A DNA stretch of 64,000 nucleotides from positions 69,175 to 133,174 of the forward strand of contig NW_023365742.1 in the NCBI RefSeq assembly GCF_000003815.2, given 5' to 3'. The notes under the pieces were generated by a model. That model did not search any database. It was not told the origin of the DNA and was given only the letters and a program-made list of their open reading frames with translations. Shown here one piece after another: positions 15,443 to 61,400 of the stretch. A program made the position numbers and the translations under genes. Source of the stretch: Branchiostoma floridae. Its lineage: Eukaryota; Chordata; Leptocardii; Amphioxiformes; Branchiostomatidae. The first letter of the stretch is position 1. The number at the start of each line of letters is the position of its first letter.

Positions 15443-15555
15443 TTAAAGAGACTTGGCCTTTAAGGTGACGGAGGGTTCCTCGATGTCCTTCTTGCTCTGG
15501 ACCAGACGAAGTTCTCGCTGAGCAGCGGTGGCCTTGTTACCAGGACCTGCTGCTT
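15443..15555 (-). CDS. PDXK: PDXK last coding exon
   Basis: Starts after the acceptor TTCTGTAG with AA GCA GCA GGT, completing the lysine codon begun by the previous exon. It ends with [13 protein letters not shown]...KSL and a stop; the human C-terminus has the same LRMVQSKRDIEDP block. The first 24 bases of the exon are the last copy of the 78-bp repeat, so this acceptor has twelve upstream look-alikes. Confidence 0.94.
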
Positions 15556-18500
15556 CTACAGAACACAACATATGCAACAGTCAATACTGAACATGGAGAA
15601 CTAGGCTGGCCTTGTTACCAGGACCTGCTGCTTCTACAGAACACAACACATGCAACAGTCAATACTGAACATGGAGAACTAGGCTGGCCTTGTTACCAGG
15701 ACCTGCTGCTTCTACAGAACACAACATACGCAACAGTCAATACTGAACATGGAGAACTAGGCTGGCCTTGTTACCAGGACCTGCTGCTTCTACAGAACAC
15801 AACATATGCAACAGTCAATACTGAACATGGAGAACTAGGCTGGCCTTGTTACCAGAACCTGATGCTTCTACAGAACACAACACATGCAACAGTCAATACT
15901 GAACATGGAGAACTAGGCTGGCCTTGTTACCAGAACCTGATGCTTCTACAGAACACAACACATGCAACAGTCAATACTGAACATGGAGAACTAGGCTGGC
16001 CTTGTTACCAGGACCTGCTGCTTCTACAGAACACAACATATGCAACAGTCAATACTGAACATGGAGAACTAGGCTGGCCTTGTTACCAGGACCTGATGCT
16101 TCTACAGAACACAACATATGCAACAGTCAATACTGAACATGGTGAACTAGGCTGGCCTTGTTACCAGGACCTGCTGCTTCTACAGAACACAACACATGCA
16201 ACAGTCAGTACTGAACATGGAGAACTAGGCTGGCCTTGTTACCAGGACCTGCTGCTTCTACAGAACACAACATATGCAACAGTCAATACTGAACATGGAG
16301 AACTAGGCTGGCCTTGTTACCAGGACCTGCTGCTTCTACAGAACACAACACATGCAACAGTCAATACTGAACATGGAGAACTAGGCTGGCCTTGTTACCA
16401 GGACCTGCTGCTTCTACAGAACACAACACATGCAACAGTCAGTACTGAACATGGAGAACTAGGCTGGCCTTGTTACCAGGACCTGCTGCTTCTACAGAAC
16501 ACAACACATGCAACAGTCAGTACTGAACATGGAGAACTAGGCTGGCAAGAAGAGGAAGCTTAAGAAGCCTTCAGATGGCATTCTCCATTTTTCGGAAAGG
16601 GGTCATCATGTGACTTGGAAGTCACAAAGTCATGACATGAGGGTGTTGAAGATGATGGTAACAGCCTTGGTTGCGTTATAACTATGGATGGGAAGCCGGA
16701 ATTCCAGGGTTTACAAAGCTCACCTTTCCTCTAAATGGTACATTGTATCTGGTTGGTCCTTCTAGCCAAGAATACCAGGCAAGCCAAGATAATCTAATGC
16801 CCAGTTGAGTATGGGAATGCTGGTTGGCTGCAAAAATGCAAGCTTATGAAAATTTGTAACTTTAGATTAATTCAAGACTTCAACACTTCCCTGTTACTCT
16901 GTGTGTTGGTGATCTGGTCCATGCTTTACTTAATATATATAATTGTGGTAAACATTATTCAAATACAATTCAATCTCTACAACTGGATAAAAAACTGATA
17001 GTTATTTCTGGACTTTTCAAGTGACATCCATCACTCTTTTTCAGTGTTACTAGAATGAACTGGCAGAACAATTCAATACAAGTACAGCTAACTAGAAAAA
17101 CTGGTTGAACTACTAACTTGTAAGCATCATATGCAGAAGTCATCTATGAGTGGAGGCCATCTACGAGCAAATCTACAAGTCCACCTTAAACCAGAAGGCC
17201 TGGCAACTCCACATAGAACTCTCAGTACTTGGGACCCCACTTTGCATCACAAAGGACAATCATTTTTCCTCTGGTGTTCTTTGTCCATATGGAACTATGC
17301 TAACATGATTTACATTTGAGTGACTTTTGCATGTACTTGTATGGCATTGTTCTGCCAGTTCATTCTAGTGATGCTGAAGAAGAGTGATGGATGTCACTCG
17401 AAATGTCCGGAAGTAGATATCCATTTTTTACCCAGTTGTAGAGATTGAATTGTATTTGAATATTGTTTACCTGGATGTCTAACCTTCATAAACGCACTGT
17501 GGTAAACATTCAATGCCTTGGCTTATGTGGCATGCTACCTAGCTTCTCAGCTACACTGATCATACAGGACAGCAAAGCTCAGACTAGTCAAGGCTGTCTC
17601 CTATTTGTTCGAGTACTGCAAAGCTGTTGAGATGGACAACAGTTAAATCATTATCATATAGAAAACAACCTACTTTGTGCATAATCCAATGTCCTCTGTA
17701 AAACAGCCTGCATTGTGGCAATGGTCTTCTCACAGGCAGTCTGGAGCAAAAACAACAAAAAATTAAGGAATAGGAACAATATTAATCCAGCTGTTCTTGA
17801 GTTATCTTGTTCACAGACAGACAGACACACACACACACAAACGCTAGTGAAAATACTACCTCCATGAGGCCACACCAATTTTACTTGTTGCTTCTAGGAT
17901 TAGCCTGTCCACTTTTTTTCATTTTCAAACTTAAAAATAATGCTGTGAGCTGTTTTCGTGGTTGACTATATTCAGCAACACAAGCCACTAGTATGCAGTG
18001 ACCCGTGATGGCAGCGATTCAGCACTACCAACATTATTGTTAAAATTGTATTTTTCCAAGTAAACAGAAAATGGATATGTAACAATATAAGTTGAATGCA
18101 AATGACATCTGTGCATGAACTTGATTTATTTACCTTTATAATCAGCATAGTCAGTGACGACAAAAACATTGTACTTATGCATGATAATCCATACTATCTT
18201 TGAGCGCATGCCATCTTAGGGCAGCCCCCGTTATGTGTCAATACATTTTATCACACTTGGCTCCTCTTCCCTTTTGGCATGGCTGCTTACTAAGTAATAA
18301 TAACATAAAGTTAACAATTTGCACCTAAAGGACAGATTCATATTTTCATTGGTTCAAGAACCAGTCCACTAAATGTTAATGATATCCGTTTTTTTCGGAC
18401 TGGTCCAGCAAAAAATACCAGACAGGTTTCGTATCCATCCTCCCCTTCCTAGTCTCAATAGCAATTGCAAGTGCAGATAATTTTCTACGGCATCTGCAAA

Positions 18501-21500
18501 AAATTACACCTGAATGAAAGCCAGAAATGTTGAGTTTCGGTGACATTAGTATTTTATANNNNNNNNNNNNNNNNNNNNNNNNNNNNNNNNNNNNNNNNNN
18601 NNNNNNNNNNNNNNNNNNNNNNNNNNNNNNNNNNNNNNNNNNNNNNNNNNNNNNNNNNATGAAGTGGTAGAACAACTCAATACAATACATATAACTGGAA
18701 AAACCAGTTGAACATATTTAGTATGCAAATGTAACTCATATGCAAATCAAGGTAAGACAGCACCTTAGGAATCATTAGCATTGTAGAGATGGATTTGTTT
18801 AAAAAAATAGTTTACCTGGATGTCTAACCAAATTTAGAAATAACAAATTTAGGCTTTTTTTTATTCAGTGTTATTTTCTTTTACCTTTCAATGACAGACA
18901 ATATTCTCGGTGTGTGTAAGCTTTTTCTAATGTCAGGTATTAGAGGACAAAAGTAACTTGCACTGGTGCAAGTTTGGTCTAAACATCAAAAAGCACCTCC
19001 CAGAGGGTGGTCTGTGACTTAGCTGGCTTCAATGTGACTTCCAGCATTCAGACAGAGCCATGTTCTTCTCCGCTTAGGCTCAGAATCCAATTTGCAACGC
19101 TTGGTATGAACAGGGCCTATGAATAATACTGTTTCTATGAACCCAGAAAAGCACCAACAGCTAAATTTATCTTTGATACAAATTCCTAACAAAGACATTA
19201 AAATCAACCAAAAATCATCCAAATCTCTTATATTTAGAGGTTGGTTTTCAAGACTTCCTGTACATGTTTTTGGCATGTAATAACCTGACCAGAAAATAAG
19301 TCATGTCTTGTGTATCTTACCATTGATCTGACTGCCTAGCAGGACCAGAGTACTGCTGGAGTCAAACTCACAGCTGGACAGGACGACTGACTTCACTCCC
19401 TTTTCATGGAACATGTCCATGGCCTGGATAGCATCTGCTTTGGTCTTAATACTCAACCCAGTCAACAACCTAATGGGAGGAAATTTGTTAAGTTTCATCA
19501 GGTTAGAACATACCTGGATACATGACTCACAAATGTTTTATTTAACTAACGTTTCTGTCCCAGAGGTCCCAAAATGGAAAATATTCTCCAGAACAAAACA
19601 TTTAAATGTGGATAACACGTAAAACCACTTTTCAACATGCATCATTATTCTGTATTGCTGCATGGTGTCCTGAAAAATGTGCCTTAACCACCCTGCAAAA
19701 GTTGCAAAGTGCTGACAAGAAGTAGAATGGCTTTATTGAGACAAACTCTCAGAGTCTAACACTAGCAGCCCAGGGGCTGAATTGTTGTTAGACTTTACAT
19801 ACATAATATTAGACTAGGCATACAAATACAAATCAACATACAATGGAGTAAAATATTATCATTAATTGAATTCGTAAAAGACAAGCTAGACAAAAACTGC
19901 TCTGGCGTGGTTTGTGGGAGACGTTCATACAAATAATGATTACATATAAGATTACAACAGTTGGCTAAGGTACAGTCATGATTCGTTTATCAATCGGGTC
20001 ATGTGGGGTATGGCACTGTTTCTGTAGCGCTCAGTTTTGCAACGTTGCAAGTTCAGTTTCGTAGATGAACGAGTTAAGCGACTGCTAATGTTCCCTCGCA
20101 AGTCCGGGAGGAAGTGGTGGTACAGTTCTGATGAAAGCAGAGACTTGGCAAAGTTCAGTGTCAAACTGGAACGATGTTCCTGGAGGAAGGGCAGCCGCAG
20201 GAGGGTGCACGCCTCAGAGTACGCGAAGTCTACTTCTTTGGAAACACTCGTGTCTTTGGCCATGAGGGCAGACTACAAGTATGAATATAGTCTACTCTGT
20301 AAAGCATATTTTTTCAACTAAATAATGAAAATACAGCAAAGACTCTGAACAAAGTTAGGTCTCCAAATAACAGTCATCAAAACATTGGTACAAATCATTG
20401 GTTGTGAATAAAGAACTTTTGTATTGTATCAAAACTGTAAATTAGGCTAAAATGGTTTGTTGAGTTTTCTAGTAGAACATGTCAGGTTGTACTTACTCAG
20501 CCTCGTACTGGTTTGGAGTGATGAGGTCGGCATGGGGGATGATCTTCTCCTGGTACACAGGCAGCAGCTCTTTGGGAACATAATGTGTGGGGAGAGGGGA
20601 TAGAGGGGGTGGGGAGGGTGGTAGAGAGGGTGTTATAGTTTAGTGTTAAACTTTAGACTAGAGTCACAACATTCAGACTAGAATACATTTGCTTACTATA
20701 CTGTTTACCATTGTTTGTCTGTCATTTTTTGTCACTTGCAATTAGCTAGCCCTTGGGCAAGAACTTGCAATAAACTGATTTATTTATCAAACATGATTGT
20801 GCCCTTGAAACTGTGAGATTACTTATTGCTTCAGTGACCTTCAGAAAGAGTAAACAGATTACTGCTTACAATCATGCATGTTGGAGGAGGAACTGAACAC
20901 CTACCATGAAGCCTCTGTCTCCCATCACAGGGTCACAAACTAGACAAGAAAAAACACTGGGTTTTAAGCAAAACAATCTCAATTACAAGAGTTATTTATC
21001 ACAGAAAAATAATGAAAGAACAATATCCAGAACACAAGATATCACCAGCGGAAATTCCACTGCAGTACCTTAGAAAGCTGCTAGAAGTCCCTTTATTGCA
21101 ATGAACCTTCGTTTTCCCAACCCCATTAGGATCCATCATGGCTACTCAATGTATGTTGTCCACTGACAGACGGATAAATGGCAGCAAAAATGTACTTGTA
21201 CTAATTGTTCTTGTCAAAGTGTAACAAAAAAGCATGTACATATGGACATGTAGGCAGACACAGCTATTTGGTTTGAAGAAACCAATGATATATAGTTCAA
21301 GCATTTTGGGACACCTAGAGATCTTCTGAAACAAAAGGCAGTAACAGACAAATAACTTACCATACAATAGGTCTGGCTTGACCTTCTTAAATTCCTTCAC
21401 CATTTCAAGAACCCCCTCTAAGAATGACACGGATCCAATGTACCCTGATGCAGTAGAAAAACATGGATCAATGTTCACTTATCTAATGTTAACTGTGTTG

Positions 21501-24500
21501 TAACTGTGCTGACTATTCCAAACTAAAGGTCATGTCATTGCATTGACAGGGTGTATTTTGTACAAATGCTTACTTCTACGTTTATTGAATGATACTATCT
21601 TGTGGATAGGCGGAAATGGAGAAGGCTTGCAGTCGCCTGCGCTGCAGCCGAACGATGATGATGATCTTGTGGAATATAAAAAGAAAATGCTGTACTTTGT
21701 ATTTAGTCTCATATGTTCCTTAAATGTAAGGCCAAAAAAAAGGTGTTTGGTGGTTACCTGAACAAATCTAGCATAAACCTGCTCATCCTATAGCCTTTCT
21801 AATGGCCCACAATCACTGACAAGGGACATAGAATTTTCAATCTGACATCTGAGTGATGAAATTTTAATACTTTTGGTAGTGATGTTCTGCTCATCTCTGT
21901 TGAAATAGAAAATTCAGTACAATAGATATCAGTACTGTAGTAGTACATGTAGTAGATTCATACATGGTGTATTACATTACCATGGGGTTATACCACTCCT
22001 TGTGGGGCATATCAGTATAAATATAACATGATCATGTCGAAAGTACCGGTTCTACATTGTTGAACAGTATTGGATCACTTCAAAATCTCAAAATCTCAAA
22101 AGAAAGAATCCCTGCTAGTTCCTGCCAACTCGAAATCGAAAACACAACACCTTAGTTTATTTTTCCTACTGGCCTAATAATGAGTTATAAATAATCAATC
22201 TTACTGGCCTAATGATTGATAAATAATCATCACAAAGAATAACTAAGATGTAATAATGACCTGTCACCAGGTAGCTGTAGTTGTTGATGTTGTTGGACTT
22301 CAGACCATCAAACAGTTCCTTCAGCTCATCAGCATTCAGAACCTGACCCTTAAAACACTTGTAGCCTACACAAGTTAGAAATACAAAAATGTTACCAAAG
22401 TAATACACTTCTACCTTGTTCCTTTTTTAATGTGAAAGGCATAGCTGCTTCAATTATTAGCATAAGACTTAAGTACAGAAAATACCAATGCAATTTGTAT
22501 TGAATAGCACTAGCATAGTTTATATCAATCATCATCATCATGAGGACATTATCACTTTACTGTATTTCCTTCAATATTCTCACTTTAACTCCACATCTAG
22601 ATCTGTATCCAATAGTAAAAATTATGTTTCAAATCTTCAATACTATTGAGTAATGTTTGGACACCAAAACTTACCTGTGTGGTTGGAAAATTGTACAGAG
22701 TTGATGTAATCCACCTCAAACCCAAGAACCTGCAAAATAAATTATACAGTTGCAAAACTAGTATTTGTACTGTATATTCTTCAATTCTGAGCAATTTTGT
22801 AACTTGCAGTTGGAGATTCACAAGTTTGTAGAGACATTATGCCGGGAACACTAGCATTTTTACAGCTTAATATGCAAAATTATAATACCTATGAAAAAGA
22901 GAAGAAATCATCATAAATTTTAATCTATCCGAGTTGAATATGTGTTCAAGATTAGTGGAGCTAAGGCATTTGTAACTTATTTGAGTTTATGTAAGTCTGC
23001 TGTAACTGTACTGCTGTTTACCGGCTATGCAATACAAGTGTCTGCCTGATGAATGACAGATCATACTGGAAAAGCTGTACTATGTTACCTCAACAGATGT
23101 ACTATGTATGCATGTATGCAATACAAACAAATACAATGTACAATACAAACAAACAAAAACATATCGCTATCAAAACTTATGATAATTCATTAACCCATTC
23201 TTGAGTCATTCTGTGATTGTCTTTTAAAGTCTGAAGCAATTCCAAAGGTCAAACCAACTAAAACAAGAGGCCAACATTTGCTCGGAAGCAAATACAGCAT
23301 ATCTCAATCCATCCTCTTCCCGATGCAAAAATGTAGTTCCATATCCACCTTTTGCAGAAATTGACCTACCTCAAAACATCAGCCCCAGAGCAAAATGATT
23401 TTTTTGGATTGGACTCTTCCAAAACACCACTGTCTATGCAAAATGAACTGTCTATGTTACCCATTTTCCATTCCTAGTGTTAAAGAAGAACCAAAGTCAC
23501 CCCAATACCAAATTCCACATCAGTTGGCTATTTCATCTCATGGGAACCCAAAATCTACATTTTTGGTCAAAAAGTGGTAAGAAAATATTTCCTGCATTTG
23601 AGGGGCATATTTTGCTTGTTAATTAAGCTAAGTTCGATAATCAAATTTCTATAAGTTAAAAAGGAATTTGGAGGCGACACTCCCACAACATAGTTTCACC
23701 ATGTCCAGTGCCAAACAAGCGAGCCATCACAAGGAGGGTCCGGCAAAATTTTGAAATCTGGACCCTTTGAAACGCAATTTCCTGCATTTTAAATGCATGG
23801 GTAAAGTTTGCCGGTAGACTAGTTAAGTAAGGCACCCAGAGCGATTTTTTTCACTTTTCAAATTCAATTTTCAAGTCATTTTTACACACGGTAAGGTTAA
23901 ATAACACTATCTCTTTGCATATCGACCTTCATTGAGCAAAGATGAGACGTGGTTGGGTGATGAGAATGAAAATCTGAGCGCTGCCCGCACCGCTGGGGCA
24001 GCCATTATTTCAAAATTTTAGGAATGCACGCGAACATGACCAATGAGTCCCAAATGCTTCCGGAGATATCATCACTTGTTCGAATCAGGTTCCGATTTGC
24101 GAACAGGCAAATCAGATTCAATTCTTTCAGTGACCTCGTGTGTTCAAACATTACCGACGGGAAACCGTCAGTGGCTCTATCCTGTGCTGATTCATTGAGG
24201 GACCCAATAAATCAAAGGATCAGTTTTCGACATGTTTGTGCGTCCTTTTAAACGCTGAAAGTACGAAATAATGATACAAATGTGCTAGTATGGTGAAGTA
24301 AATTTCAATATCGTACCTATTGTCTCATCGAGAATATTTCCAATTTTAATGCTCTAAAAATCGCTCTGGACCCCTTTTATTAAGAACAATTCTATGAATT
24401 ACCTTTTACTGCAAATTCCGGTTAGCTTCTACATCATACGTTAAATTAAAGAAACCAATAGCGCGCAACGCACGCTCTACGGAAAAGTGCATGGGGGGCC

Positions 24501-35700: not shown

Positions 35701-38700
35701 TTGTTTAATTTTTACTAGCAAGCAAAATGCTGAAGAAACCTTAACAAATGGATTACTGCAGAAGCGTTTCCTGAGTGACTTGTCTGAAGCCAGGTGGAAC
35801 AGTCCGTTCCGCCCACCCAATCAGTGGAGAGAGCTGGTCGTGGGGCGTGGCCTGGTCATCCACCTCTTCAAGGTCAGGGTTCACTCCTACTCTCATTCTA
35901 AAGTCATTGTTGCTGGGGATTGGGTTTCTTGATTGGGGAAAAGGAGATAGTTGCAGTAACTTATTAAATTCTCAGTTGGGAAAACTGCAGTGATGCAATG
36001 AAAGACCATACCCCCATGAATGGCTATACATATAGAATACAACACGGTGTATTCCGTATCACCCGAGGTGCCAGCCCAACCACGGGTCGTATCGCCCAAA
36101 GGTCGGAGGGGGATCCGACCCATGGGAGGGCTGGGGCCGAGGGTGATGCGGAATACATCATGTGGAATTTGTCTATGTCATACCCACCTGAAAAAAACAC
36201 ATATTTCGATGCGAAATGCACCAGAAGTTGTGAAAATGTTGTGTCCTCGAACAAAAGATTATTGCCGTATTCACTCCGTTCAAAATAGTTTGATTTACTC
36301 GAAGAAAGCCAGTGTGATACAACTTAGAACCCGTGTGATACGGAAAGTTATCACACGGTCCAGAACACCCGTATCGAACGTTCTCGCGTCACAGGTATGA
36401 CATAAAGTAGAATACCTCACAGTATCAGCCCTCAGATTCTTATTGTTGAGTTCGCTTCTAGAAATCAATGTGGTTGTCGTATCTAGGTCACTGAATTTCA
36501 AATATATGGTGGAAAAATAGCATATGGCACTGTTTGTTTTTGCAAGATTATAATACATGAAGGACTACCAAAAAATTCCTTTTCTTATTTGCCTTGTTTC
36601 TTCATATACACAGAAAACTTTCTGTTTTTGAGAAAACATTTTGTCCACGGGTTCGGAATTCCTTTTTTCAGCATTTTTTCTTGAAATAAGATAATTCTTA
36701 TTGGAGTAGTAGTAGAGAAAAATCCTAATATTTTCTTAAACATAAAAGAAATTATAAAAGCACAAGAAAAACAAAAATTTTGACTTAAATTTCTATAATT
36801 TCTTGAGAGTCAAAATCATTTTGAGAAATATTTTAAATCTCTTTACTCACAAAATCAAGATAGTGTTCCTTGTTCTGAGAATTTTCATGGGAAGAATCTT
36901 CAATTTATGGAGGCAGCAAGAGCAGTCATTATGCAGGTACTTTTTGTCTTGCTTTTGAACATCAATGAGTGCTCCTTATATGGCACAAGCTTTCCCTTTG
37001 GACTACATGAAGTGGGTGACGGTTAGTGGCCATACCCCTAGTACTAATACTGCATAAATATTCGTGGTGGTTTTATGTTCTCATTTTTTGTGGTAGACAC
37101 TTCACCGCAAACTTAAAACCACCGAGAACATTTTTCCATGGCAGTAATAGACTGCAGTGCATGGTGATACCGCGAAATTAAAACCACCGCGAACAGTCCT
37201 TTTCCCCCGCTACCGCAAAATTTAATCCCCGCAAAATGCATTTACAGTAGTAAGAATCTATCCCTGCAGCTATATGGACATGTACAGAACCATGCTGAGC
37301 TGGCCCACACGTGTCTGCAGTGTCTGTTGTCCTGATGTTGGTATTGTTGTCTATCCCTGCAGCTATATGGACATGTACAGAACCATGCTGAGCTGGCCCA
37401 CACGTGTCTGCAGTGTCTGTAGTCCTGATGTTGGTATTGTTGTCTATCCCTGCAGCTGTATGGACATGTACAGAGCCATGCTGAGCTGGCCCACACATGT
37501 CTGCAGTGTCTGTAGTCCTGATGTTGGTATTGTTGTCTATCCCTGCAGCTGTATGGACATGTACAGAACCATGCTGAGCTGGCCCACACATGTCTGCAGT
37601 GTCTGTAGTCCTGATGTTGGTATTGTTGTCTATCCCTGCAGCTATATGGACATGTACAGACCCATGCTGAGCTGGCCCACACGTGTCTGCAGTGTCTCCT
37701 GCAGCTCGTCTCCACCACTGGGGACATCTTCCCTGACCACAAGACTCGCGCTGACTTCCTCAGTCCCTTCATGGCAGGTTTCCTCCATTTAACTCAGAGG
37801 TAGGAAACAAACAATTTAGGGTTGGGTGAGTACTGAAAAATCCACTTGCCCTATAGGGTAGGAACAGAAGAAATCTACTGGCCGGAACTTAATTTTTGGT
37901 GGCCTGAATTCAAATGACGTACTTCATATACTATGATATACATGGGCATTTTCACTCGTAGCAAGGAAATTCTTTTATGAATACTATAGCATAACATGTA
38001 ACATTGCTCTAGTCTTTTTTACTTCAAAATGTCTGAGCAACCAAGGCAATTAATTGGTATGGCCTAGGCTATGATCTTTTGAGATGCAAATCAAGGACAC
38101 CAACATGGCATCAGCACCTGCCTACTTGATTCACAAGAAGGTGACTAAGAGAAACACCCTATATTGTACTGAATCACTTGTCCATATCTCAAGTATAACC
38201 TGTTTTTTCTATTGAATGTGTCTATAGAAACACACTAGCTGAGTACGAGGTGTTGGGTGTGGCTACCCTGGCCTGCCGCCTGCTCACAGTGTTTCCCAGC
38301 AAGCACCTGGGACAGGTTTCTTCTGAGCAGCTCCAGGCTTTCCTCACCAGGACATGCCAGCTCACATGCTCATTCTCTTACCTGGCCATGCACCAGAAGG
38401 TCAGCTTCTTTCTTTGTTTTTGTTTGTTTGTTTGTCACATGAAATAGATACATACCTTAGTCTTATGAAACAAAATGCTTATAGGTTATCAAAATGGAAT
38501 TAACTGTTAGATAATCTTTTTAGATGGTAAGATATTTTTCATCACATGTATTACAACATTAACGTAAATGAAAACCATACATGTGCTTGTCTTTACAGCA
38601 ACTTACTAGGTAAATGCTAGAAATGAAAATATAAAAAGACAAAGAAGTTGTAATTGTTCACTTATTTTAGTTTATTGAAGTTATTACATGCAATATAACA

Positions 38701-44700: not shown

Positions 44701-47700
44701 ATCCTTGAGCAGGCAGACTCCCTGAAGTTGTACGAGGTGACGATACAGCTCATCCAGAGCTACGCCCGACACCACGGCAGGCACAGGTTCACAGTTGATG
44801 CCAGCGCAGAGGAAGATGACTTCAATGACCTGATGTTACTGCTGGAGATGTTGACACAGCTGACCAACAAGGACTTTGTAGACTTTGGGGCCACAGGTAC
44901 GTAACTGCACATTGTATTTATTATGTCATACCTGGGCTGTGATGGTGTTCGATACTTGTATTCCAGACAGAGTAATACAGGTTTTCACAGAGACTTCCAT
45001 AGAATGTTTCAAACAGGCTTCCTGTGTGCAGTGCATGTATGTGCCAGTGTTGAAAATATCAGATTCAGATGCTAGAATTGATGTTGTTAGGATTTTTTGT
45101 TTGAAGACAACAGATTTTTCAAAATCAAGTGCATCTAGTCGTTTCACAGGACAGTTCACAGTGTCTTTAAATTTGTAATTGAAATAATAATATTGAAGAC
45201 ATGGTGTAATTTGTAAATGGACTCATCAGGTTTTATGAGTCAAGTTTATTTGTACACAACCATTTAGAGGTTTATTCAATCAATATTGTTGATGTCTATA
45301 ATACATGTATGTAAAATGTTATAAGTTTGGGACAGCATCTCTAAGCAGCAACACCATAGCTGTAGTATAATTTGAACCAGTTAGAATTGCCTTGAGGAAG
45401 GTGACAGACAGTCACCGGAAGGTCGGTTGCATAGAATACATGTACTTTGCTGTGTATAAAAAACTTAGAAGCGCTGGTATTTCTATTGTATAGCTTCATC
45501 GTTCTACAATAATGATTATAGTAGTAACATAACAGAAACACCAGTATTTGTTCATGGGTGTGGCACTGCAACCAGACAGTGAAAACTGCAAACTTAAAGA
45601 CATGCTGAATATTTAGATTTACAGAGACATGGCATAGTTAATGAGGAAATTCTATGTTTTCAGTAACAGCAAGTAATATCAGTATAGAGTGCTCTCCTGT
45701 ACTATTGTACATGTAGGTCTAACAGTCCATATCAGTAACATACAGTAATATCAGTATAGCATTCTCTCCTGTACTATTGTACATGTAGGTCTAACAGTCC
45801 ATATCAGTAACATACAGTAATATCAGTATAGCATTCTCTCCTGTACTATTGTACATGTAGGTCTAACAGTCCATATCAGTAACATACAGTAATATCAGTA
45901 TAGCATTCTCTCCTGTACTATTGTACATGTAGGTCTAACAGTCCATATCAGTAACATACAGTAATATCAGTATAGCATTCTCTCCTGTGCTATTGCACAT
46001 GCAGCCAGTCATTCAAGAATTTGTAAATTCATCCCTTTTTGGTAAGATGAGAAAGTAAAATTTTGAGATTTCATGAAAGAAGGATTCAAAAATAGAGAAT
46101 GCTCAGTATCATTTGCAGGCTAATGTAATCTGTATCCATTCAATGTAAACCCACTGTCAATGATAATACATGTTGACTACCTGCAGATGACCCTGGTGCA
46201 GGGGAGCCAGCAGTGGTTCCAGCTGATGTGGTATTCTGTGGACTGGACTTTGTTGTCCCACTCATGAATGCTGAACTGCTCAAGGTAGGCTGGGCTGGGC
46301 CCAACAACAGACTCTTGTTGTGGTGTGGTGTGGTGTGTGTGGTGTGGTGTGGTGTGGTGTGGTGTGTTGTGTGGTGTGGTGTGGTGTGTTGTGTTGCGTT
46401 GTGTGGGGCGGGTGTAAGTGGGTGGGTGTACATGTATGTGGTGTGTGGGCGTGTCTGGTTGTACATTTATTGTTTGTGTGTGTGTGTCTGTGTGAGCACA
46501 TCATCATCATGCATGCAAGTGTGTGTACAATTATGTGTTGATGTGTGTTACACCCCGTTCATACTAGGATTCGCATATCCGGATATTTCCGGATTCACAG
46601 TGAATACAGATGTATTACCAACATGTGTTATTTTCTCCCCTGTAGTTTCCCAGTCTGTGCCTGCAGTACTTTAAGCTGGTGTCCTTTCTGTGTGAGGTGT
46701 ACCCAGAGAGAGTTCCCCAGCTCCCACAACAACTCTTCTCCAACATCATGGCTTCCCTTCAGCTGGGGCTGTCCTCGTATCCTCTACAGATAGTAGTTAA
46801 TCCACAAAGTAAAGGAGCCGGTCTGTCAGAGGTTGAACCACTATCCAAAAGGTCAAACAGTGTCCAACTAGCCATTGAGATCTGCTTGCACTCAAACAGG
46901 GGGGAGAATTTCTTTTCAATAACAGTGTTGCGGCCGCTCCTCGTGATAATATTAACAGCAATATGAATATTTGAGGTGCTAAATGCTTTTAAAATGCTGA
47001 GCGACTTGTATCTTTATCTGGGACAATTCAGTGACGTCCCCGTGGGATGTTATCACCAAACAAAATGGAGGTCAATTAACACCTACATGGCAATGACAGT
47101 TTGATTAGTTACCATTTGGATGTTATAGCATAAAAGCAGCCTTTCTTCCGTAAATGATTTCTTTAGGTTGGCAATTATTCATATTGTAAGGTTCTTTAGG
47201 CACAATCAGGGAGTAATTACTTCAAATGTTTCATCAGGGTTAGAATGACTGGATCTGATTCTTGCTGCTACTTACGGCCAATGTAGGTGGCGCTGCAGCA
47301 GCAAGAATGCTGAAGTCATGAATAGAGATGAGGGGGGATACAATGCTTACATAACTTACACATGATTTCAGTACCTACTGATCTTTCTCACCAAGTAACA
47401 TTGTCTTAAGATTCAACTGAACCTGCCAAAGTCAAATTTACTGAAAATGATTGATATTGCCATGCGCAATGTTGGTGAATTAACGACAGATACTTGTGCT
47501 CTAATGTTCAAGGCATGAGTACAATCCACTTCAACCAAAATGACCCTGTCGTAAACTCCAAATCCTCGCAAACTATAATTTTAAAATTGGCACAGGGTGA
47601 CACACGGCCGCGGTTTGGTTGCAATAAGCAGTGTTTCTGTATCTAAGGGACCGGAAATCATGTGGCCGCTATGAACTATTTCTTATTGTTTAGGTCAATG

Positions 47701-51200: not shown

Positions 51201-51201
51201 A

Positions 51202-51597
51202 CTAGCCTGGGTACCATTCGGACAGTAGTTTGCTCCTATGTTCGCTTCTGCTCTCCGTCTGGAGAACTGTACATTCAAACCATTTGGTGGTAACGTCGGT
51301 TAATGAGCGAAGTAAGGAATTGGTTCTAGAGCATCCATTCAGTGATGACAGGCCTCCCACAAGCGGACGGAACGCCTGTTCAAACGATCGCTTGAACCCA
51401 TTCCATAATTAGGGACCAATCAGCACCTGCGTCCAAAATTTGGACGATTCCAGACGTTAACGTGGTCAAGGTTCCCAGACGGAACAGCAGAGAAGCGACT
51501 GTATATAGTGTATCATGAACATCAGAGCTAGAAGCGACTGTATATAGTATATAATGAATGCCAGAGCAAACTACTGTCTGGATGGTACAGTATGGCT
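51202..51597. mobile_element. hAT-like MITE with 8-9 bp target duplication
   Basis: aatctcata flanks both sides (51193-51201 and 51598-51606). The ends are inverted: gtaccattcggacagtagtttgctc on the left, gagcaaactactgtctggatggtac on the right. The 396-base interior has no gene. An 8-9 bp duplication points to the hAT superfamily. A partial relative is at 40225-40560. Confidence 0.88.
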
Positions 51598-51606
51598 AAT
51601 CTCATA

Positions 51607-54280
51607 CCCTATTGTTTGCCTTGCATGTAAGTGTACGTGCACTTCAATATTTTACTTCTTCTTGGAGACAACATGAAATAAGCGTCTGGACATGATTTTG
51701 CAGATAAAACATGTTTTGTTTTTTTCCCATAAACAAGTATAACATGTGGGATATTGTTGTTGGAGCATGATAGATGAATTGTCCAATGACATAATACAAT
51801 ACAATGATTGATAGTTATATTTAAATGATATTTTCTCATTAATCATGCTGTACCTACCTACCTAGTCCCTTGACCTCCAGGTCGTTGGGGGGACAAGGTA
51901 GCCACAAAGATAGAGAGTTCTATTATGAAATGCAGCTGATTTATGAACTTTCTTATCAATTATGTAAATAAGCTCATGATTTGCATAGTTAGCATCTGAT
52001 TATTTAAAGCAGCACCAAAGCTATCTACATACCGAGAATCATTTAAATCATACATGTCCAAATCTCAAAAATGAAAATGCTCACTGCAGTTCCACACATG
52101 CCGGTCGGGGCCCAAACTTTCTGCAAGGAGCATTCATCAGGTCATGGAAGCCCCTTGCTCCCTGCCCCAAGACCAATCCACTTTCAGAAAATTTGACCTC
52201 CAACTATGAAATGCTGTAACTCGCCAATAGGTCGCCCATTATCAAACTTGATCTTCCTCTTCACAAACACTGTACACCCACCAAATATCATGCAAAACCA
52301 TCCATAGGTTTTTCAGTTATTTTGTCCTCTATTAAAGAAACACCAGGCATAGACAGCCCACTGCAGTACCGACGGAAAATGTCAGGAGAATCATTTTTGA
52401 AATGGACCACAACTGTTACTCAAATATCATGAGGATCCATACAGTCACAGCTTCTACCAACATACACAGCTACTCCACTATGGCACAAAACATGACCTTG
52501 GTGAAGGTTATGAATGCCGTGAAGCAACTGTAAAATCAGTCCTTGGAGCAATGAAATGAAACTTTAACAACATAATCGACTGTATGCACATTTTGAAAAA
52601 CTTTAAGATATTCATGTTGGTGAATTCACCAATGATCCGGACCGACTGGAATTATATTGTAGTCAGAGTATGGCGCCGTCCAACGAAGGACTGAGCAACT
52701 ATTTTCCCGATATAAGCGGTCGGAAAATGCTTTCAAAGTATTAGATTTAATCAACTACGGAATAGGACGTGATAAAATAAAAGTTGCCTTTTGGGGGTTA
52801 AACACTAACATGACGAGGACGAAAGAACCAGGACGAGGACGAAACATCCAAAACGGGGACGAAAGGACTAGGGGACGAAAGATCTAGGGGACGAAAAGAC
52901 CTGATACCAAGCCAGCCTAGGAGTGTGTTTGGCAAATATACACCTCTTGGCTGACTACACTCCCTCGTCAGTTTGGTACTATCTTATGCCACCGTAGGAT
53001 CTTCTTGGAGATTACTTTAGATCATCAAGATTTGTCTGATTTTGTCCCTAACAGCGATCGGTCAAAACTATCATTTCAATGCTGCGCATAAACTTGCACA
53101 CAAAAATGTCACAAAACGATGTCGGATTTTTTTCAAACCAACTTTGCTGGGTGCAGAATAATCAAACCAACTTAATTGGGTGCGGAATTCTGCAAAAAAA
53201 ATGCTTTTTTTGCCATAGAAGAGCAAGCCGAGTTTTTTTTACCAAAAAGTTGCATATTTGATGTCAAAAAAATATTCTGCACCCATGAAGGCCACACCAA
53301 TTTGATTTGTTGGTTCTCGGATTTTTTTTTTTCAGAAAAAAGTTGAAGCGACAGGGCGAAAAAAAAAAACTTGCAACAAATCTGAGTTCAGGTCCAGAGG
53401 TCCAGGATGATAAGTCCAGTCCTCAGATTCGGGACATTTCGGTCCCAGGTCCGCCTGGCTCTGTTTACAGACATCTAACACGATATATCTTACCACTAAG
53501 AAATCCTTCTCAAAACCCATGGAGAAACATGGTTAACAGTTTCCCATCAACCGTCAGGCCGTGAAAAGGTATATATGCGGTTCCAAGTCTTCCAATAGGC
53601 CCAGAATCGTCCATGCTGAACATAGCGGTTAGAACGCGGGTTCTGCGATCCGGACGTGAACGTTTAGAACTTCACTATATATCTCTCATGACACTGTTAT
53701 GAGAATCGGATTTCTTTCAAATTTGGCTGAAATATTCATAAATGCTTGCAAAGTCGCTATGCCAATTGCTATGCTAAAATCATCGATCGTTATCGAGTTG
53801 CTTGTTACTGGGTAACTTTGTAATCAGTGGTCTCAAACCAAGCAGCTTTTATATCTGATATAAAAGCTCCTTGCTCAAACACATTGGGCATTCAACTCAT
53901 CTCCACTGGTTTCCAAAACAGAGTGCCTACTATGCTCTATACTTATTTTGGGTACCAAATTAGCACAAACATAATCCACACACATATGTAGACGAGTATA
54001 CTTTATTCATATACCTCCACATTATGCTGGATACTACTACTACACTTGAGGTTGATATTGCGTCGTTAAATCAGGTCCAATCTAAGGGCACATCCCCCGT
54101 ATGTGCAACTGCGTGCATCCTCCTACGCACGGTCCCAACGGCTAGCTGACTGCTCAGCCTATTGGGCCCTGCTATCCCAGGCCCTACCCCCAGGTATTAT
54201 GATTGTCGCCACAAACTCGCCGCCCTGCTTATAAATATTAATGAGCTTACCCTTGTATGGGCAGTCAGCCGTTGGGATAT
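51607..54280. other. Intergenic sequence
   Basis: No gene recognised. Contains a short decayed tandem stretch (gacgaggacgaaagaacc and similar, about 52808-52900) and A-rich/T-rich runs near 53320-53370. Nothing else could be supported. Confidence 0.4.
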
Positions 54281-54282
54281 TA

Positions 54283-56590
54283 ATTGAATGAATGAATGAC
54301 CTTTATTGTACATTTGTGCTCAAACAAGCTAAGTACAGGTCGTAGCGCTAGTGATAAGGTACAATTTTGACAAAAAAGGTATCTTATCATCTCTGCATAT
54401 GCTAATACATTCAAGTATGTACAAGTTCAACTTCTTCTCGCTTCTTAAAACAGTTATAAACATAAGGACAAATGGAATCAATAATATATGGCTTATCTAA
54501 TTGCATGAGAAATATAAATTTTTCCGTGGTATTCAAGTATCGGAAATTTGGGAACATAAGTTGTATATTTTCAAAAAGGACGTTTCTTTCGTTGTTGTAT
54601 AAAGTACATTCAACAATAAAGTGGCACTCATCCTCTATCTTATTCAAGTTACAGTATTGGCAGATTCTTTCTTCCAGAGGAATGTGGTTATGTCGGCCTT
54701 TTTCAATGTGGAGTCTATGTGAACTAATGCGGAGCTTTGTGATGGCTGTTCTGTGCCGAATGTTTGCAATCTTTAAGTATTTCTCGTCGTTGTAAGTAGT
54801 TTTAAGTAATCTGTATGTTAGTAATTTGTTGTTGCTGCGCATTGCTGTTACGAAAGATTGGAGGTACATATCTTTTAAACGTTGGTCGATGGATGGAATT
54901 ATTTGTGATGGATTTAGGGCAGATGATATGGGAGAGTGCCAGACATAGCCAAAACCACATTCCTCTAGCGTCTTGCGGACTCCAGAAGCCCAGCATTTAG
55001 CGCCTAATGTGTCTAGCTCCAGTTGGCACAAAAGGGCGTCTGCAGACAGACTATCAGCTGGCACGTTCTGGCGTACTCTAATATACTGTTTGATGGCGTT
55101 AAGGGATGCTTCTAGTTTAAGAGGGTGTCTTCCCAGTTCTGCCATTACGGCCAGGTTACAGGCGGATCTGGGGACATTCAATGATTGTTTACAAAATTTT
55201 AAATGGATAGTTTCAATTGGGGATGATTTTGGAGTTTTGAATGAACCCCATATTTCCGAACCATACAACAAAATAGGTTTCACGCATGTGTCAAATAGTT
55301 TGCTTCTTATGGATATAGAAGCGTCGGCTTTGCCAAGGGACTGGTTGATTCCAAAGAGGGCTCTCAGGCCTTTGCTGTGTAGATATTTGTTATTTGCCTT
55401 GAACGTGCCAGCTGAATTTACAACAATGCCCAGATAGCAATAATTTGTAACAATTTCTACTACATGTCTATTATATAGAAAAAGGCAGTCTTTCGGTAGG
55501 CGGCCACCTTTCGTAAATACAATGACTTTAGTTTTCTTTAGATTAACATTTAACTTCCATGATTCACAATAATTTTCTAATCTACTTAGAGAAGTTTGCA
55601 GACCCTGTTGAGATTCAGACAAAAGTACCAGGTCATCTGCATATAATAAACATGACACTTTCTTATTGTGCAATATAGGAGGGTTACAGGAAAAATCCGA
55701 ATGGTCATTAAACACATCTGGTAAATCACTTATGAATAAATTAAACAAAGTTGGACTAAGATTACAGCCTTGTCGAACCCCACAGTTAGTTACAAAAGTA
55801 TCGGTAAGACCGTGGCTAGTTTTAACACAATTTGTTGTTTTGGAATACATGTCTTTTATAGTGAGTAGAAATTTCCCCCCTAATCCAAGTTTATTTAATT
55901 TCAGTAAAAGGCCTTCTCTCCAAACCGAGTCAAACGCCTTGCTAAAATCTACGAAACAGGCATAAAGTCGTGCGTTTTTGCTCAGATATTTACTGACTAA
56001 GGTGGATAATACGAAAAGGTTGTCAGTTGTTCTAAAGTTCTTTCTAAAACCGGCCTGTTGTGGTTTGAAAAGGCTGTAATGTTCTGCATAATTAACAAGA
56101 CGAGTATTCAAAATAGATGAGAATAGTTTTCCCAGACAACTAATTATTGAGATTCCCCGATAGTTGTCTGGGACAGAAGTGTCCCCGGATTTATGAATGG
56201 GTACAATATGACTTAGGGACCATTCTTTAGGGAAGTAACTATTTTGTAGACAGGAATTGAAAAGATGTAGAAGTGGTTTCTTTAGAATATGTCTTCCACA
56301 TTTTAACATTTCATTATTGATCATGTCGCCACTGCTAGATTTTTTGTTTTTTAAATTTGATAAAGCGGTGTCCAATTCTTTCTCAGTTATAAGGGAGTCT
56401 AATATGGAGCTCTCCATTGGGATTGTATTTGAAAGGGATGAAGTGTCTACGGTTTCGGTGGTTGAAGCGTCTATGTTACAGAAACCATGTCAAGGTTTGT
56501 TAAGTGTTTGTCAAGGTTACTAAAGTGCTGTAACCAGTCCTCCTCTGATATTTGGCTACTCCCAGACACTTTCTCTGGTTTCAACTTATA
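54283..56590 (-). pseudogene. Non-LTR retrotransposon, reverse transcriptase, 5' truncated and frameshifted
   Basis: The open frame 56417-54411 gives 668 codons: LSHIVPIHKSGD, NYRGISIISCLGKLFSSIL, CFVDFSKAFDSVW (motif A), GVRQGCNLSPTLFNLFISDL (motif B) and LLYADDLVLL (catalytic YADD). A C-terminal CQYCNLNKIEDECHFIVEC zinc knuckle follows. Upstream, minus-strand codons for QISEEDWLQHFSNLDKHL (about 56560-56510) sit in another frame, so one frameshift lies near 56490-56510. Homology ends near 56590. There is no endonuclease domain and no RNase H. The 3' end at about 54283 carries aataaaggtcattcattcattc, a short-repeat LINE tail. Jockey/CR1-like group; clade not fixed. Intergenic between XPO4 and MRPS9. 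Confidence 0.93.
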
Positions 56591-56604
56591 GAGTTATAGA
56601 GCAT

Positions 56605-56632
56605 ATAGAGTCAATAGTACTATTGACTCTAT
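56605..56632. repeat. 28-bp perfect palindrome
   Basis: Centred on agtact: atagagtcaatagt followed by its exact reverse complement actattgactctat. It sits 15 bases beyond the 5' truncation point of the retrotransposon. Confidence 0.95.
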
Positions 56633-57151
56633 TGGTCCAATTGCTACAATTAGACCACCGAACCAGAGCCTGGTAGAGGCTATCTACGTACAAAACGTGG
56701 TACCGCCTCCGTACGAAATCCTACGGTATCCAACGGATTTACGTTCGTGCAGAACTTTCTCTGCGTTCGAGTTGCGGTTTCACCTCCGTACGAGCCAGTA
56801 CGGGCGACTCGCGTGCCCTGTACACCCAGTGCTAGTGAGGAAACTGTACGTAAGCAGCACGTGTAAGTACGGCCTGTATACGGTAACATGAAATCGCGCA
56901 GAGATCGTACGTACAACCCAACACTTGTACCACGAACGACGCATGCAACCGCTCACGGCCAGGCGTGGCATGCAGACCACATACTTACACTTTGCGTAAC
57001 CGTGCGAGTGCCACGTGCGTTGAGACGTGCTCCCTCTCTGCTCTTTTCATTCATTTCTTAGAAATCTTTCTTACGTTTTCAGAAAAAAAAGTGGCGGACA
57101 TGGCCTCCCCAAAACAACCGACGGGCTAGGTACAGGTCACTGATAACAGAC

Positions 57152-58048
57152 ATAACAGACATAGCCTGAGTATCATCCTCCGTAGTAACCGCTGGTCTTT
57201 CGCTTGCCACCGTGGTTAGCAAGCGAAAGTCGTGCGCCAGCGGTTACTACGGAGGATGATACTCAGGCTATAGGCTCGTTCTCATTTTTAATGTCGAAAT
57301 GCTGTCGCCTGACTTTACGCATGGATATGCAGCAAATTATAGACAACATCGCCGGTTCCTTCATTTTTCCACAACCCCTGAGGCTGTAATATTTTACAAA
57401 AGATTCACAACAACATTATCATTCATATTGGTTCATGGCTTTGAAGGTTATTATAGCCTCGGGTGGGATTTCAACCCCTAAAAAATGGCTGTCGCCTGAG
57501 AAGAAACGAAGAATTCAAATGGCAGAAATGTAACAATTCAGTACCCAGAATGATTTCTGACGATGTACAGTTTTCTGGCTTTTTAAAGAAACAAGAAAGG
57601 GTTGTTGACTGTCATTTGTATCCCACCTTGCTTAACAAAATGTTGCACAGAAATGACTGTAACAAACGTTACCATTGTTCGATGCTGTCTAAGCTTTCTA
57701 TTTGACCTGGTGTAAAAAATCTGCCCCCTTTTTAAATGTTCCTAGGGACGTCCACTTATACCTAAATGATGTAGTCAATAAGGTGAGTCCTTTCGAAGAA
57801 AACAGGGCAAAGTCTACTGTTGTAACAAACGTTACCGGTAACGTTTGTTACCTGCCTTGTATTGACTTACCAATGGGACCGAAAATGATAAGTTGCAATT
57901 TTTTGCTATGGTTAAAAGAGGAATTTTCCTAAACAACCAAGTATAAGAAGGTAGTTTTCACTGAAAATAAAGCCGACTTATTTTTCGACCAAAACTTTGC
58001 CATTTTAGACATTTCAATGAGAACGAGTGTATAAGTATAACAGACATA
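57152..58048. mobile_element. Foldback insertion with internal hairpin and 12-bp flanking repeat
   Basis: ataacagacata occurs at 57152-57163 and 58037-58048. Just inside on the left is a perfect inverted repeat with 35-bp arms (57161-57195 and 57237-57271) and a second nested stem, ctttcgcttgc/gcaagcgaaag. From 57273 ctcgttctcatt is mirrored by aatgagaacgag ending near 58026. Three plus-strand frames (57204-57389, 57463-57705, 57702-57932) have no recognised motif. Confidence 0.75.
57822..57851. repeat. 30-bp perfect palindrome inside the insertion
   Basis: gtaacaaacgttacc followed by its exact reverse complement ggtaacgtttgttac. A related half (gtaacaaacgttacc) is present near 57659-57673. 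Confidence 0.95.
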
Positions 58049-58438
58049 TGCAGAGACAACAAGATACAATTTAACTAATTGTAGGTACTAAGCTAACAGG
58101 ATGGTCGACATATTCTCGCTTCTTTGTACAGATGTAGATATAGGAACAGATAATGTTTGATATACAGAATTTGTTTGATTTATCTAGGCGCATCAAAAAT
58201 ATGGGAACTCTTTTCTGATATATTCATAAGCAGATCCTACAATCATCAGATAGTATGAAACTGGCCAAGGAGTGTAGTCAGCAAAGAGGTGTCCATTTGC
58301 CATGTAGCGAAATACACTGCCAGCTTTTGATACAATCTTATGCTACCGTAGGATCTGCTTGGAGATTACCTATTACCCCGGAGCGTATCGATATGTGAAA
58401 TTTGTGGTAACTGCGCCTGCGTATTATCTGTAACCAAG

Positions 58439-61400
58439 ATGGCGGCGCCCATGGTCCATGGAACGGTCACGGCTTGTGGTCGTTTGTTACTGCGATTTTC
58501 TTCTCCACTTCTAAGAGACATTTATGGGAACGGGCAGAATGCCATGCTGAAGACTAAGGTAATGCGTACATGTAACTGTAATTGTGTTATGAGAAGGAAT
58601 TTTGTTTCAATTATGATTGTCAGTAGGGGCGAGAGATAAAACCGGAAAACGCAGGAATCACACGAAGGAGGATGAAATCTGCTGAAAGTATTTTTTTTCT
58701 ACAAGTAAACATTGAAGGTTGCTATATTTTGGCAAAGAATAATCTACGTATGGCCCTAGAATTAAGAAATCGTCAGAAAAAAAAAGGAGACGACCGGCGA
58801 CCCTGCCGCACCGGTCCCCGATATCATATCGCGAATCAGTGCTCTCCTCCCTCAACATGTATATTATAACGTTACATATGTTCTGAACTATGTAACGCTA
58901 TATCGTTCTTTAGCAAAACTGCGTAAGCTTCACCCTCCTTTTTCAGCACTCGGTTCCAGTGCTGAATGTTTCAGCACTGGGCTTCCAGTGCTTAGGCGCT
59001 CTGAGCTTTGCACTTAGGAAACTCCAGGACGTTCCAGTGCTGAATAGACATCAGCACTCGTTTTCCAGTGCTACAGATTTCTTAGCACTGGTAAATCCAG
59101 TGCGGAAGGCACAGCTTTTGTAATTCAGCACAACAATTACAACATTCTAGAAAAACTTATTGTATTTTGGAAGTAATGTTAAGAACTAAAAACAGAACAC
59201 GATACTACTCTTGGTTCAGATCCGTAAACTTTCATTCATTCTCTACGTGGCCTTTTCGGCAAAGCTGTATCCTCAATGACGTTGATTTAGTGGTCTTCCC
59301 TTCCCTGACAGTTTGTGCACAAACATGGACTGGATGAGATTGGGAACATAGAATGTGCTTCAGACGTTCCCGAATAACCCTTTAAAAGTATAGACCTTTC
59401 CCCCTACCACCAACATTAATGGTATTAAAAGAGCATCTTATATTGTTATGATTATCCTAAGAAAATACAGGTTGTAGTGCATGCATACTAATTTCCTACT
59501 ATTGTTGAATTTTCAGCAGACCCAGAGATGCCTGTCAATCTCGGCTGCCAGGCATCGACAGCAGACCAAATCCACCAGCAGTCTGTCGGACAAGCCTTAC
59601 ACAGAGGAGTTCCTACAGGAGATGGACCAGGAATACCAGCTGGGGAAGAGACACCTGGCTAACATGATGGGGGAGGATCCAGAAACATTCACACAGGAGG
59701 ATGTAGATGTGGGTTATGAGAAACATTCACACAGGAGGATGTAGATGTGGGTTATGAGAAACATTCACACAGGAGGATGTAGATATGGGTTACTGTAAAT
59801 GCGCTTAAGTTCGCGGGGATTTAATTTCGCGGTAGTGGGTAAGTGGACTTTTCGCGGTGGATTTAAGTTCGCGGTAACACCATGGACTGCAGTCTAAACT
59901 CTAATACAATAACAGAAAAATGTTCGCGGTGGTTTTAAATTCACGGTGAAGTGGTCACCGCAAAAACCACGAACATTAATCCACCGCAAACATTTCTGCA
60001 TTTACAGTATCAGAAACATTCACACAGGAGGATGTAGATGTGGGTTATCAAAATCATTTAGACAAACAACGTCATACACCAACCTCCAGCGTCCTACTTA
60101 TTTAGTCGAAACCTTTGTCACTGCACTCAAATGTGCACGGTATCAATCGGACCCAGACTTCATACAGCCACATGGTTTTTCAAGCTAATAACTGCATTCC
60201 ATTCTGTGTCACTATGACTTCATAGCATATAACAGTTAACACCCCCCAAAGAAAGGTGATACAAAAACATTTAATCCTGAGCTGTTTTGAAAGCTGTTTT
60301 GTTTTTGCTCCCATTCTGTTTCAACAGAGAGCCATCCGTTACCTTCTTCCATCAGGATTACATGAGAAGCTGGCCAGACCCATGCTGAAGGTAAGGAGAA
60401 GTTTTGCACAGTGTAGACCATTATTCAGGCATGTTCTGTTCAGGGGGTATGTGTTCTACAGTGTAAACTACAGTGTGCTCAGGGATGATGCCTTACTCCA
60501 GTGTTCTACTAGTGTAGACCACTATGTTCAGGGGGTATGTGTTCTACAGTGTAAACTACAGTGTGCTCAGGGATGATGCCTTACTCCAGTGTTCTACAGT
60601 GTAGACCACTATGTTCAGGGGGTATGTGTTCTACAGTGTAAACTACAGTGTGCTCAGGGATGATCCCTTTAATACTCCAGTCTTGTACAGTGTATCCTGA
60701 ATTGATCCTAATGAACGTGTTTCAATGTCTGTTTGTCCTACATGTACTCTGAAAAGCCCTGTTCATGATGCAAAAATCCAGTTTTATCCGTTTGAACTGA
60801 AAATACAACAGCAAACGGTTTGCATTTTGTGTTCACGATACAAACTTGCACCCACAGGCAAACCGTTTTGAATCCTTGAAAATGGTAATGTGACTTCTGA
60901 CCCGCTGATGTTGTTTTGATTCTGTACAATCTTGTACTTCTGCCTCAGATTATCTGTCTGTATCTAATAAAGCCGGTATAATTGCCCTTTGGCGCAACAC
61001 ACCAGCTAATTGGTCTTCGATCGGAACTAATCATGAAACAATGTCTTTCTGAAGCTGAGTTCCTTTTTGTGGCCTAGGAAATGTCTGTGAAAACATTCTG
61101 GTTCCGATATGCTGTAAATGCATTTAAGTTCGCAGGGATTTAATTTTGCGGTAGCGGGAAAAGGGACTTTTTGCAGTGGATTTAAGTTCGCGGTAACACC
61201 ATAGAATACAGTCTAATACCATAATAAAAAGATGTTCGCGGTGGCTTTAAGTTCGCGGTGAAGTGGTCACCGCGAAAACATTAATCCACCGCAAACATTT
61301 CTGCATTTACAGTATGCCATGTTTCCTGACACATCTTCCCTCTGATATCAGGACAGTTGATTCCCCAGCTGACCAGCAGGAGGCCCAATAAAAAAAAATT

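What the first reader, a model, noticed from the sequence alone, without database searches (positions are those of the whole stretch)
15532..60050. Three unrelated genes each carry a minisatellite whose unit is an exon-intron boundary
PDXK (13 x 78 bp, acceptor of the last exon), XPO4 (5 x 93 bp, acceptor of exon 8) and MRPS9 (4 x 38 bp, donor of exon 2) all have tandem arrays in which every unit contains the real splice site plus adjacent coding sequence. Two arrays extend into the intron from an acceptor and one from a donor. Three of four genes in 64 kb is far more than chance. I recall arrays of this kind being described at the amphioxus Adh locus as mirage minisatellites; if so, this window suggests that they are genome-wide rather than a curiosity of one gene. 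A mechanism that starts at, or is tolerated at, splice boundaries is implied.
Basis: partly seen in the sequence, partly recalled or inferred. Interest (0 to 1): 0.93.

Follow-up and report, generated by a model that had tools for sequence, protein, structure and literature searches.

The report
Minisatellites copying exon-intron boundaries in amphioxus
Three neighbouring amphioxus genes each carry a stack of repeated copies of one of their own exon-intron boundaries, a known oddity of this animal, and a genome search suggests that stacks holding splice-donor sequences are unusually common, which raises the question of how such genes are still spliced correctly.

Summary
Tandem arrays cover the last-exon acceptor of PDXK (13 x 78 bp), an internal acceptor of XPO4 (5 x 93 bp) and a donor of MRPS9 (4 x 38 bp, the fourth copy split off by a MITE-like insert). 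Each copy carries coding sequence and, with one exception, an intact splice dinucleotide. They are new members of a kind in print: the 'mirages' of amphioxus Adh3, globins and PGBD5. In the same assembly Adh3 has arrays on 4 of 4 boundaries of its two mapped exons. Within the window, 3 of 5 larger arrays at junctions is modestly unusual (P 0.002-0.015, after the fact); the other 52 of 55 tested junctions show no decayed copies. Genome-wide, short-unit triples of the donor octamers CAGGTAAG and CAGGTGAG number 1553 and 2179, against 9 and 10 read backwards and 104 for a donor broken by one base. One weak acceptor octamer showed little excess (77 against 60). Most likely: local tandem duplication across a boundary, biased towards donors, tolerated because the exon-proximal copy stays intact. 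The bias towards real donors and the splicing choice are inferred.

The parts
15529..16546 (-). PDXK mirage array, 13 units of 78 bp (51 intron + 27 exon bases), over the last-exon acceptor; 13 of 13 units keep CTGTAG|AA
15443..15555 (-). real last coding exon of PDXK; its first base 15555 follows the exon-proximal acceptor copy
37257..37697 (+). XPO4 mirage array, 5 units of 93 bp (13 intron + 56 exon bases of the boundary plus 24 bp seen only between units), 5 of 5 keep CCCTGCAG|CT
37642..37799 (+). real XPO4 exon; acceptor is the last copy in the array
59681..59792 (+). MRPS9 mirage array, first three 38-bp units over the donor after 59708; the third has lost GT
60012..60049 (+). fourth MRPS9 unit, behind the insert, donor dinucleotide kept
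59519..59708 (+). MRPS9 exon (homology from 59568; start of exon approximate) whose donor is the first copy in the array
59793..60009 (.). MITE-like element with inverted ends CTGTAAATGC, flanked by TA, inserted between MRPS9 units 3 and 4, so younger than the array
37045..37249 (.). relative of the same MITE, ending 7 bp before the XPO4 array (left end approximate)

Best explanation
These are mirage minisatellites. A short segment spanning a splice boundary was tandemly duplicated and then multiplied and turned over by unequal exchange or slippage. Selection allows this because the copy next to the exon body stays intact: the last copy at an acceptor, the first at a donor. Splicing must mostly use that exon-proximal copy, since the extra copies carry the same local signal but lead to an in-frame stop in the unit read in each of the three genes. 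The genome-wide excess of donor octamers in short-unit arrays suggests that donors at least are preferred places of array birth or survival, not merely places where arrays are tolerated. Shown: anatomy, junction positions, copy identity, stops, the octamer excess. Inferred: duplication as origin, exon-proximal choice (through exon context), and that the octamer excess reflects real donors. I put identity as mirages at about 0.95 and the donor bias as a property of real exon ends at about 0.6; the figure below is for the whole statement.
For: Arrays and junctions. Unit divergence 2.4% (PDXK, 6 distinct of 13 units) and 2.8% (69 shared XPO4 bases) fits turnover within an array. 52 of 55 tested junctions have no copy at all, mean score 10.12 against a null of 10.04, so arrays look young or quickly lost. 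Adh3 in the same assembly has arrays on 4 of 4 boundaries of its two mapped exons. One of 11 larger arrays in 27 other preset stretches is a donor array at a predicted exon, L003 6075-7455. Donor octamer triples: 1553 vs 9 backwards, 2179 vs 10, broken donor 104; by locus density about 15-fold over the broken donor. Published RT-PCR on globins is said not to show disturbed splicing (PMC3087553, passage).
Against: Over 39 arrays of all kinds in 324,691 bases, strong splice signals in units are not in excess (donor 1 seen, 1.5 expected; acceptor 5 seen, 4.5 expected), though this test is insensitive: the XPO4 and MRPS9 arrays did not reach its thresholds. The acceptor octamer shows little excess (77 vs 60). 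Most octamer arrays were not mapped to exons. Matches are overlapping triples, so long arrays count many times; 42 of the first 100 come from one array. Single-copy GAGTGGAC, the backwards control of CAGGTGAG, is itself rarer (2 vs 11). A further control octamer (GTGACAAG) did not complete. No transcripts were seen.
Confidence: 0.65

Rival explanations
1. Pure tolerance: tandem arrays arise anywhere at random, amphioxus has many, and some fall on junctions and survive because one copy stays intact. Splice sites play no part.
For: In-window excess is modest and after the fact; 39 arrays show no excess of strong splice signals; the acceptor octamer shows little excess.
Against: Donor octamer triples exceed the backwards pattern about 170- and 220-fold by matches and the broken donor about 15-fold by loci; 4 of 4 Adh3 boundaries carry arrays (a locus chosen because known).
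Confidence: 0.25
2. The octamer excess is a composition effect: G-rich minisatellite units or a few dispersed repeat families happen to contain CAGGTRAG-like words, and the mirages in genes are a separate, rarer matter.
For: Five of the 14 first CAGGTAAG loci fall in one or two dispersed unit families (by eye); loci crowd in parts of C1; only a few control octamers were run.
Against: Nine of the 14 loci have units unlike one another (by eye); one base change (CAGGAAAG) cuts 1553 to 104, and some of those listed look like acceptors.
Confidence: 0.25
3. Assembly artefact: the arrays are collapsed, expanded or invented by the assembler.
For: The window lies on a 153,499-base contig, outside the 19 large contigs, and has three N runs; the draft of one published mirage was misassembled (PMC3087553).
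Against: Units differ by scattered substitutions and one array carries a clean TA-flanked insert; the Adh3 mirages known from earlier work are in the same assembly. Copy numbers may still be off.
Confidence: 0.05
4. The arrays do a job, for example as a store of alternative splice sites or of truncated, decay-prone transcripts.
For: 13 of 13 PDXK and 5 of 5 XPO4 copies keep the acceptor.
Against: Units are too alike for retention to mean much: PDXK varies at 4 of 51 intron and 2 of 27 exon positions; one of four MRPS9 donors is lost; no decayed or conserved arrays at 52 other junctions.
Confidence: 0.05

Closest known systems
Mirage minisatellites of amphioxus Adh3 (Canestro et al. 2002; paper not held; seen only as cited in PMC3087553 and PMC3902484)
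   Same: Tandem units spanning an exon-intron boundary, at acceptors and donors; seen here in the same assembly
   Different: Adh3 units here are 26-59 bp and sit on 4 of 4 mapped boundaries; the window has one per gene with 38-93 bp units
Mirages of globin genes BflGb6 and BflGb9 (PMC3087553, passages)
   Same: Acceptor (BflGb6) and exon-end (BflGb9) duplications; concerted evolution inside the cluster; 6 and 3 units on two haplotypes
   Different: Longer units (150-160 and 157 bp); haplotype and RT-PCR data exist there, not here
PGBD5 tandem repeats of lancelet (PMC3902484, passages)
   Same: Repeats of 60 and 108 bp over splice sites of exons 3 and 4
   Different: Described as imperfect; window arrays are 97-98% alike
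Intron gain by tandem duplication of AG/GT sites (model cited in PMC3087553; abstract listings)
   Same: Tandem duplication carrying splice signals
   Different: There the duplication makes a new intron; here an existing boundary gains decoys and no new intron is seen
Introners (PMC9860276, abstract listing only)
   Same: Sequence with splice signals spread through genes
   Different: Introners are one element copied into many genes; here each array is a copy of its own gene's boundary

Membership tests
Mirage minisatellite (amphioxus) | Tandem repeat whose unit spans an exon-intron boundary | tested here: met
   three of three arrays
Mirage minisatellite (amphioxus) | One intact boundary next to the exon body, coding frame preserved | tested here: met
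   the XPO4 phase rests on homology of the downstream exon only
Mirage minisatellite (amphioxus) | Same kind found at the type locus Adh3 in this genome | tested here: met
Mirage minisatellite (amphioxus) | Length differences between haplotypes, somatic instability | not testable with these tools
   XPO4 array found at one place only in the assembly; no reads or second haplotype
Mirage minisatellite (amphioxus) | Regular mRNA splicing in spite of the repeats | not testable with these tools
   no transcripts held
Mirage minisatellite (amphioxus) | Turnover inside the array (neighbouring units alike) | tested here: inconclusive
   6 distinct of 13 PDXK units, but mean differences by distance show no clear trend (1.67, 2.09, 1.70, 2.11, 2.50, 1.86)
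Introner | Copies of one element in many genes | tested here: not met
   XPO4 array: 1 place in the genome (PDXK and MRPS9 arrays not searched); the three boundaries do not resemble one another's introns (null maximum 18)

The most novel reading that the evidence does not exclude
5' splice sites themselves seed tandem duplication in the amphioxus germ line (for example through stalling linked to transcription or to U1 binding), so that some hundreds of loci carry stacks of decoy donors, and splicing in this animal picks the exon-proximal site by exon context rather than by local sequence.
Probability: 0.3. Interest if true: 0.85.

Novelty: new member of a known kind. Interest (0 to 1): 0.55.

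Why it matters
The three arrays extend a known list. The genome-wide excess of donor octamers in short-unit arrays is what may be new: I did not see it in the listings of nine searches of the held papers, which lack most subscription journals. If it holds, it makes two questions directly testable: whether splice sites provoke tandem duplication, and how splicing ignores up to a dozen near-identical decoys. It also bears on the published proposal that such repeats give rise to new introns.

Tried and rejected
Decayed mirages at other junctions: none; 3 of 55 tested positive, the other 52 (mean 10.12, maximum 15) equal the null. One search is an earlier version with a null contaminated by neighbouring exons. 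7 of 62 junction calls were dropped as unreliable before both counts. The 24-bp XPO4 filler as a templated insert: longest match 8 bp, no better than shuffles. A MITE as cause: one sits inside the MRPS9 array and one ends 7 bp before the XPO4 array, but the inside one is younger than its array, and no end motif of this MITE was found near PDXK. A myosin survey: 142 exon matches, loci not cut; the one myosin stretch fetched (L023) held no array with unit 15 or more. L022 4800-4899 and L010 1307-1985 were looked at as candidates and left open.

Hand work: array labels, C1 positions and first-place lists were typed from tables; unit families, loci and the 11 larger arrays were counted by eye; the human labels, the species and the term introner's meaning are recalled.
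Full report
What is there. TRF on the window gives five larger arrays (unit at least 30 bp, at least 2.5 copies, overlapping rows merged): 15529-16546, 37257-37697, 45660-46001, 59681-59792 and 60437-60694. Exons of PDXK (-), XPO4 (+) and MRPS9 (+) were placed by tblastn with recalled human proteins and refined to 31 introns by a script, 7 of whose 62 boundaries I judged unreliable. One exon each of XPO4 and MRPS9 was checked against PDB sequences. Three of the five arrays contain a junction: the PDXK last-exon acceptor, an XPO4 acceptor and an MRPS9 donor. The other two contain none of the mapped junctions.

Anatomy. The PDXK unit is 51 intron plus 27 exon bases, and 13 of 13 copies keep CTGTAG|AA. 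The XPO4 unit of 93 bp holds 13 intron and 56 exon bases of the real boundary plus 24 bp found only between units; 5 of 5 keep CCCTGCAG|CT. MRPS9 has four copies with identical 28-bp exon parts; the third has lost GT. Reading on from a decoy meets an in-frame stop in the PDXK consensus unit, the second XPO4 unit and the first MRPS9 unit (other units not translated). The real site is the copy that touches the exon body. That the arrays 'extend into the intron' follows from this and is no evidence of mechanism.

Age. Mean divergence is 2.4% between PDXK units and 2.8% over the 69 shared XPO4 bases. The MRPS9 array already existed when a TA-flanked MITE-like element jumped into it. At the other 52 of 55 tested junctions there is no sign of worn copies: scores match the null. 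Arrays here are thus young or quickly lost; this rests on one window.

Chance in the window. If arrays fall at random on non-coding or boundary positions, 0.32-0.61 of the five would span a junction; three or more has P 0.002-0.015, and with 2-copy arrays added 0.006-0.027. Suggestive, but the window was picked for this feature. In 27 other stretches at preset places (251,878 bases; L023, chosen for a gene, left out) I count 11 larger arrays. One, L003 6075-7455, is a donor array: a predicted 191-bp exon ends at 7448 in CAG|GTAAGG, followed by copies of that donor (23 CCCA[GT]GTAAGG sites including the first, 14 CAG and 9 CAT). A Pfam RPEL repeat lies on the same strand (E 1.1e-6). The exon is predicted, not proven, and the other ten arrays were not annotated. 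Across 39 arrays of any size strong splice signals were not in excess; that test misses the XPO4 and MRPS9 arrays, whose signals are below its thresholds.

Positive control. Print names Adh3 as the type locus (passages of PMC3087553 and PMC3902484; the 2002 paper is not held). In this assembly the Adh3 match on C6 (L030) has arrays at 128-375 (acceptor side of the first mapped exon), 471-559 (its donor), 564-968 (next acceptor) and 1154-1477 (next donor): 4 of 4 boundaries of the two exons mapped. Further exons were not found in the 8 kb fetched. The locus was chosen because it is known, so it shows kind, not rate.

Genome-wide test. Three copies of an octamer with 15-45 bases between them mark short-unit arrays. 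Overlapping triples are all counted, so long arrays count often. CAGGTAAG: 1553, and 9 for the pattern read backwards. CAGGTGAG: 2179 and 10. CAGGAAAG, a donor broken by one base: 104, and 28 backwards; some of its listed units look like acceptors followed by GAAAG. TTTTACAG, an acceptor form: 77 and 60. Single copies in the preset stretches, L003 left out, number 13, 9 and 8 for CAGGTAAG, GAATGGAC and CAGGAAAG, 11 and 2 for CAGGTGAG and GAGTGGAC, 18 and 24 for TTTTACAG and GACATTTT, so single-copy frequency does not explain the CAGGTAAG result and explains about a fifth-fold part of the CAGGTGAG one (2 against 11). By loci, the first 100 of 1553 CAGGTAAG matches make 14 loci on C1 up to 32.4 Mb, one array giving 42 of them; 100 of 104 CAGGAAAG matches make 15 loci in the genome and all 77 TTTTACAG matches 22. 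The density of loci is about 15 times that of CAGGAAAG, comparing part of C1 with the whole genome. Nine of the 14 loci have units unlike one another; five fall in one or two dispersed families (by eye). At 7 matches a locus some 200 and 300 loci would carry the two donor forms, a rough extrapolation. The acceptor test is weak: in the window 0 of 7 TTTTACAG are mapped acceptors, while 2 of 4 CAGGTAAG and 1 of 5 CAGGTGAG are mapped donors. A further control octamer, GTGACAAG, was asked and never answered.

Reading. The three arrays are mirages, a kind in print; the globin paper already says the kind is possibly more general in cephalochordates. What is added here is that donor-bearing arrays are strongly over-represented in this genome. 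Plain tolerance does not predict that, since it gives no octamer an advantage. Whether real donors seed arrays, help them survive, or merely resemble a common repeat unit is not settled: outside the window only the L003 and Adh3 arrays were looked at next to an exon, and the MRPS9 donor is of another form.

Species. The assembly is unnamed (513,431,437 bases in 431 contigs). An Adh3 gene with mirages fits amphioxus; B. floridae is my recollection from genome size and the 19 large contigs.

Noticed in passing
window 20560-20640 (- strand): The PDXK exon that begins near 20582 has no AG at its expected start; the sequence reads CCCCACACAT before TATGTT, beside a short pyrimidine repeat (20587-20632). 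Either a sequence error, a damaged acceptor or a mismapped exon.
   Followed up: no
window 18559-18658: An N run lies where PDXK residues of about 206-251 of the human protein should be encoded; no exon for them was found around it.
   Followed up: partly
window 37045-37249, 59793-60009, 61112-61314: Three copies of one MITE-like family (about 76-84% alike in the two pairs compared, ends CTGTAAATGC/GCATTTACAG); two of three touch or nearly touch mirage arrays.
   Followed up: partly
window 45660-46001 and 60437-60694: Two further minisatellites (72 bp x 4.8, 88 bp x 2.9) in introns of XPO4 and MRPS9, not over a mapped junction; the second begins 46 bp after a donor.
   Followed up: partly
G000 C1, 0.05-1.84 Mb and 5.70-5.87 Mb: Donor-octamer arrays look crowded in parts of the contig; the first 100 CAGGTGAG matches all lie within the first 5.87 Mb of C1.
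   Followed up: no
G000 C1 near 9.48, 20.22 and 29.24 Mb: A dispersed unit of about 51 bp repeats both an acceptor-like (TTTATAACAG) and a donor-like (CCAGGTAAG) signal a few bases apart, like a row of tiny exons (read).
   Followed up: no
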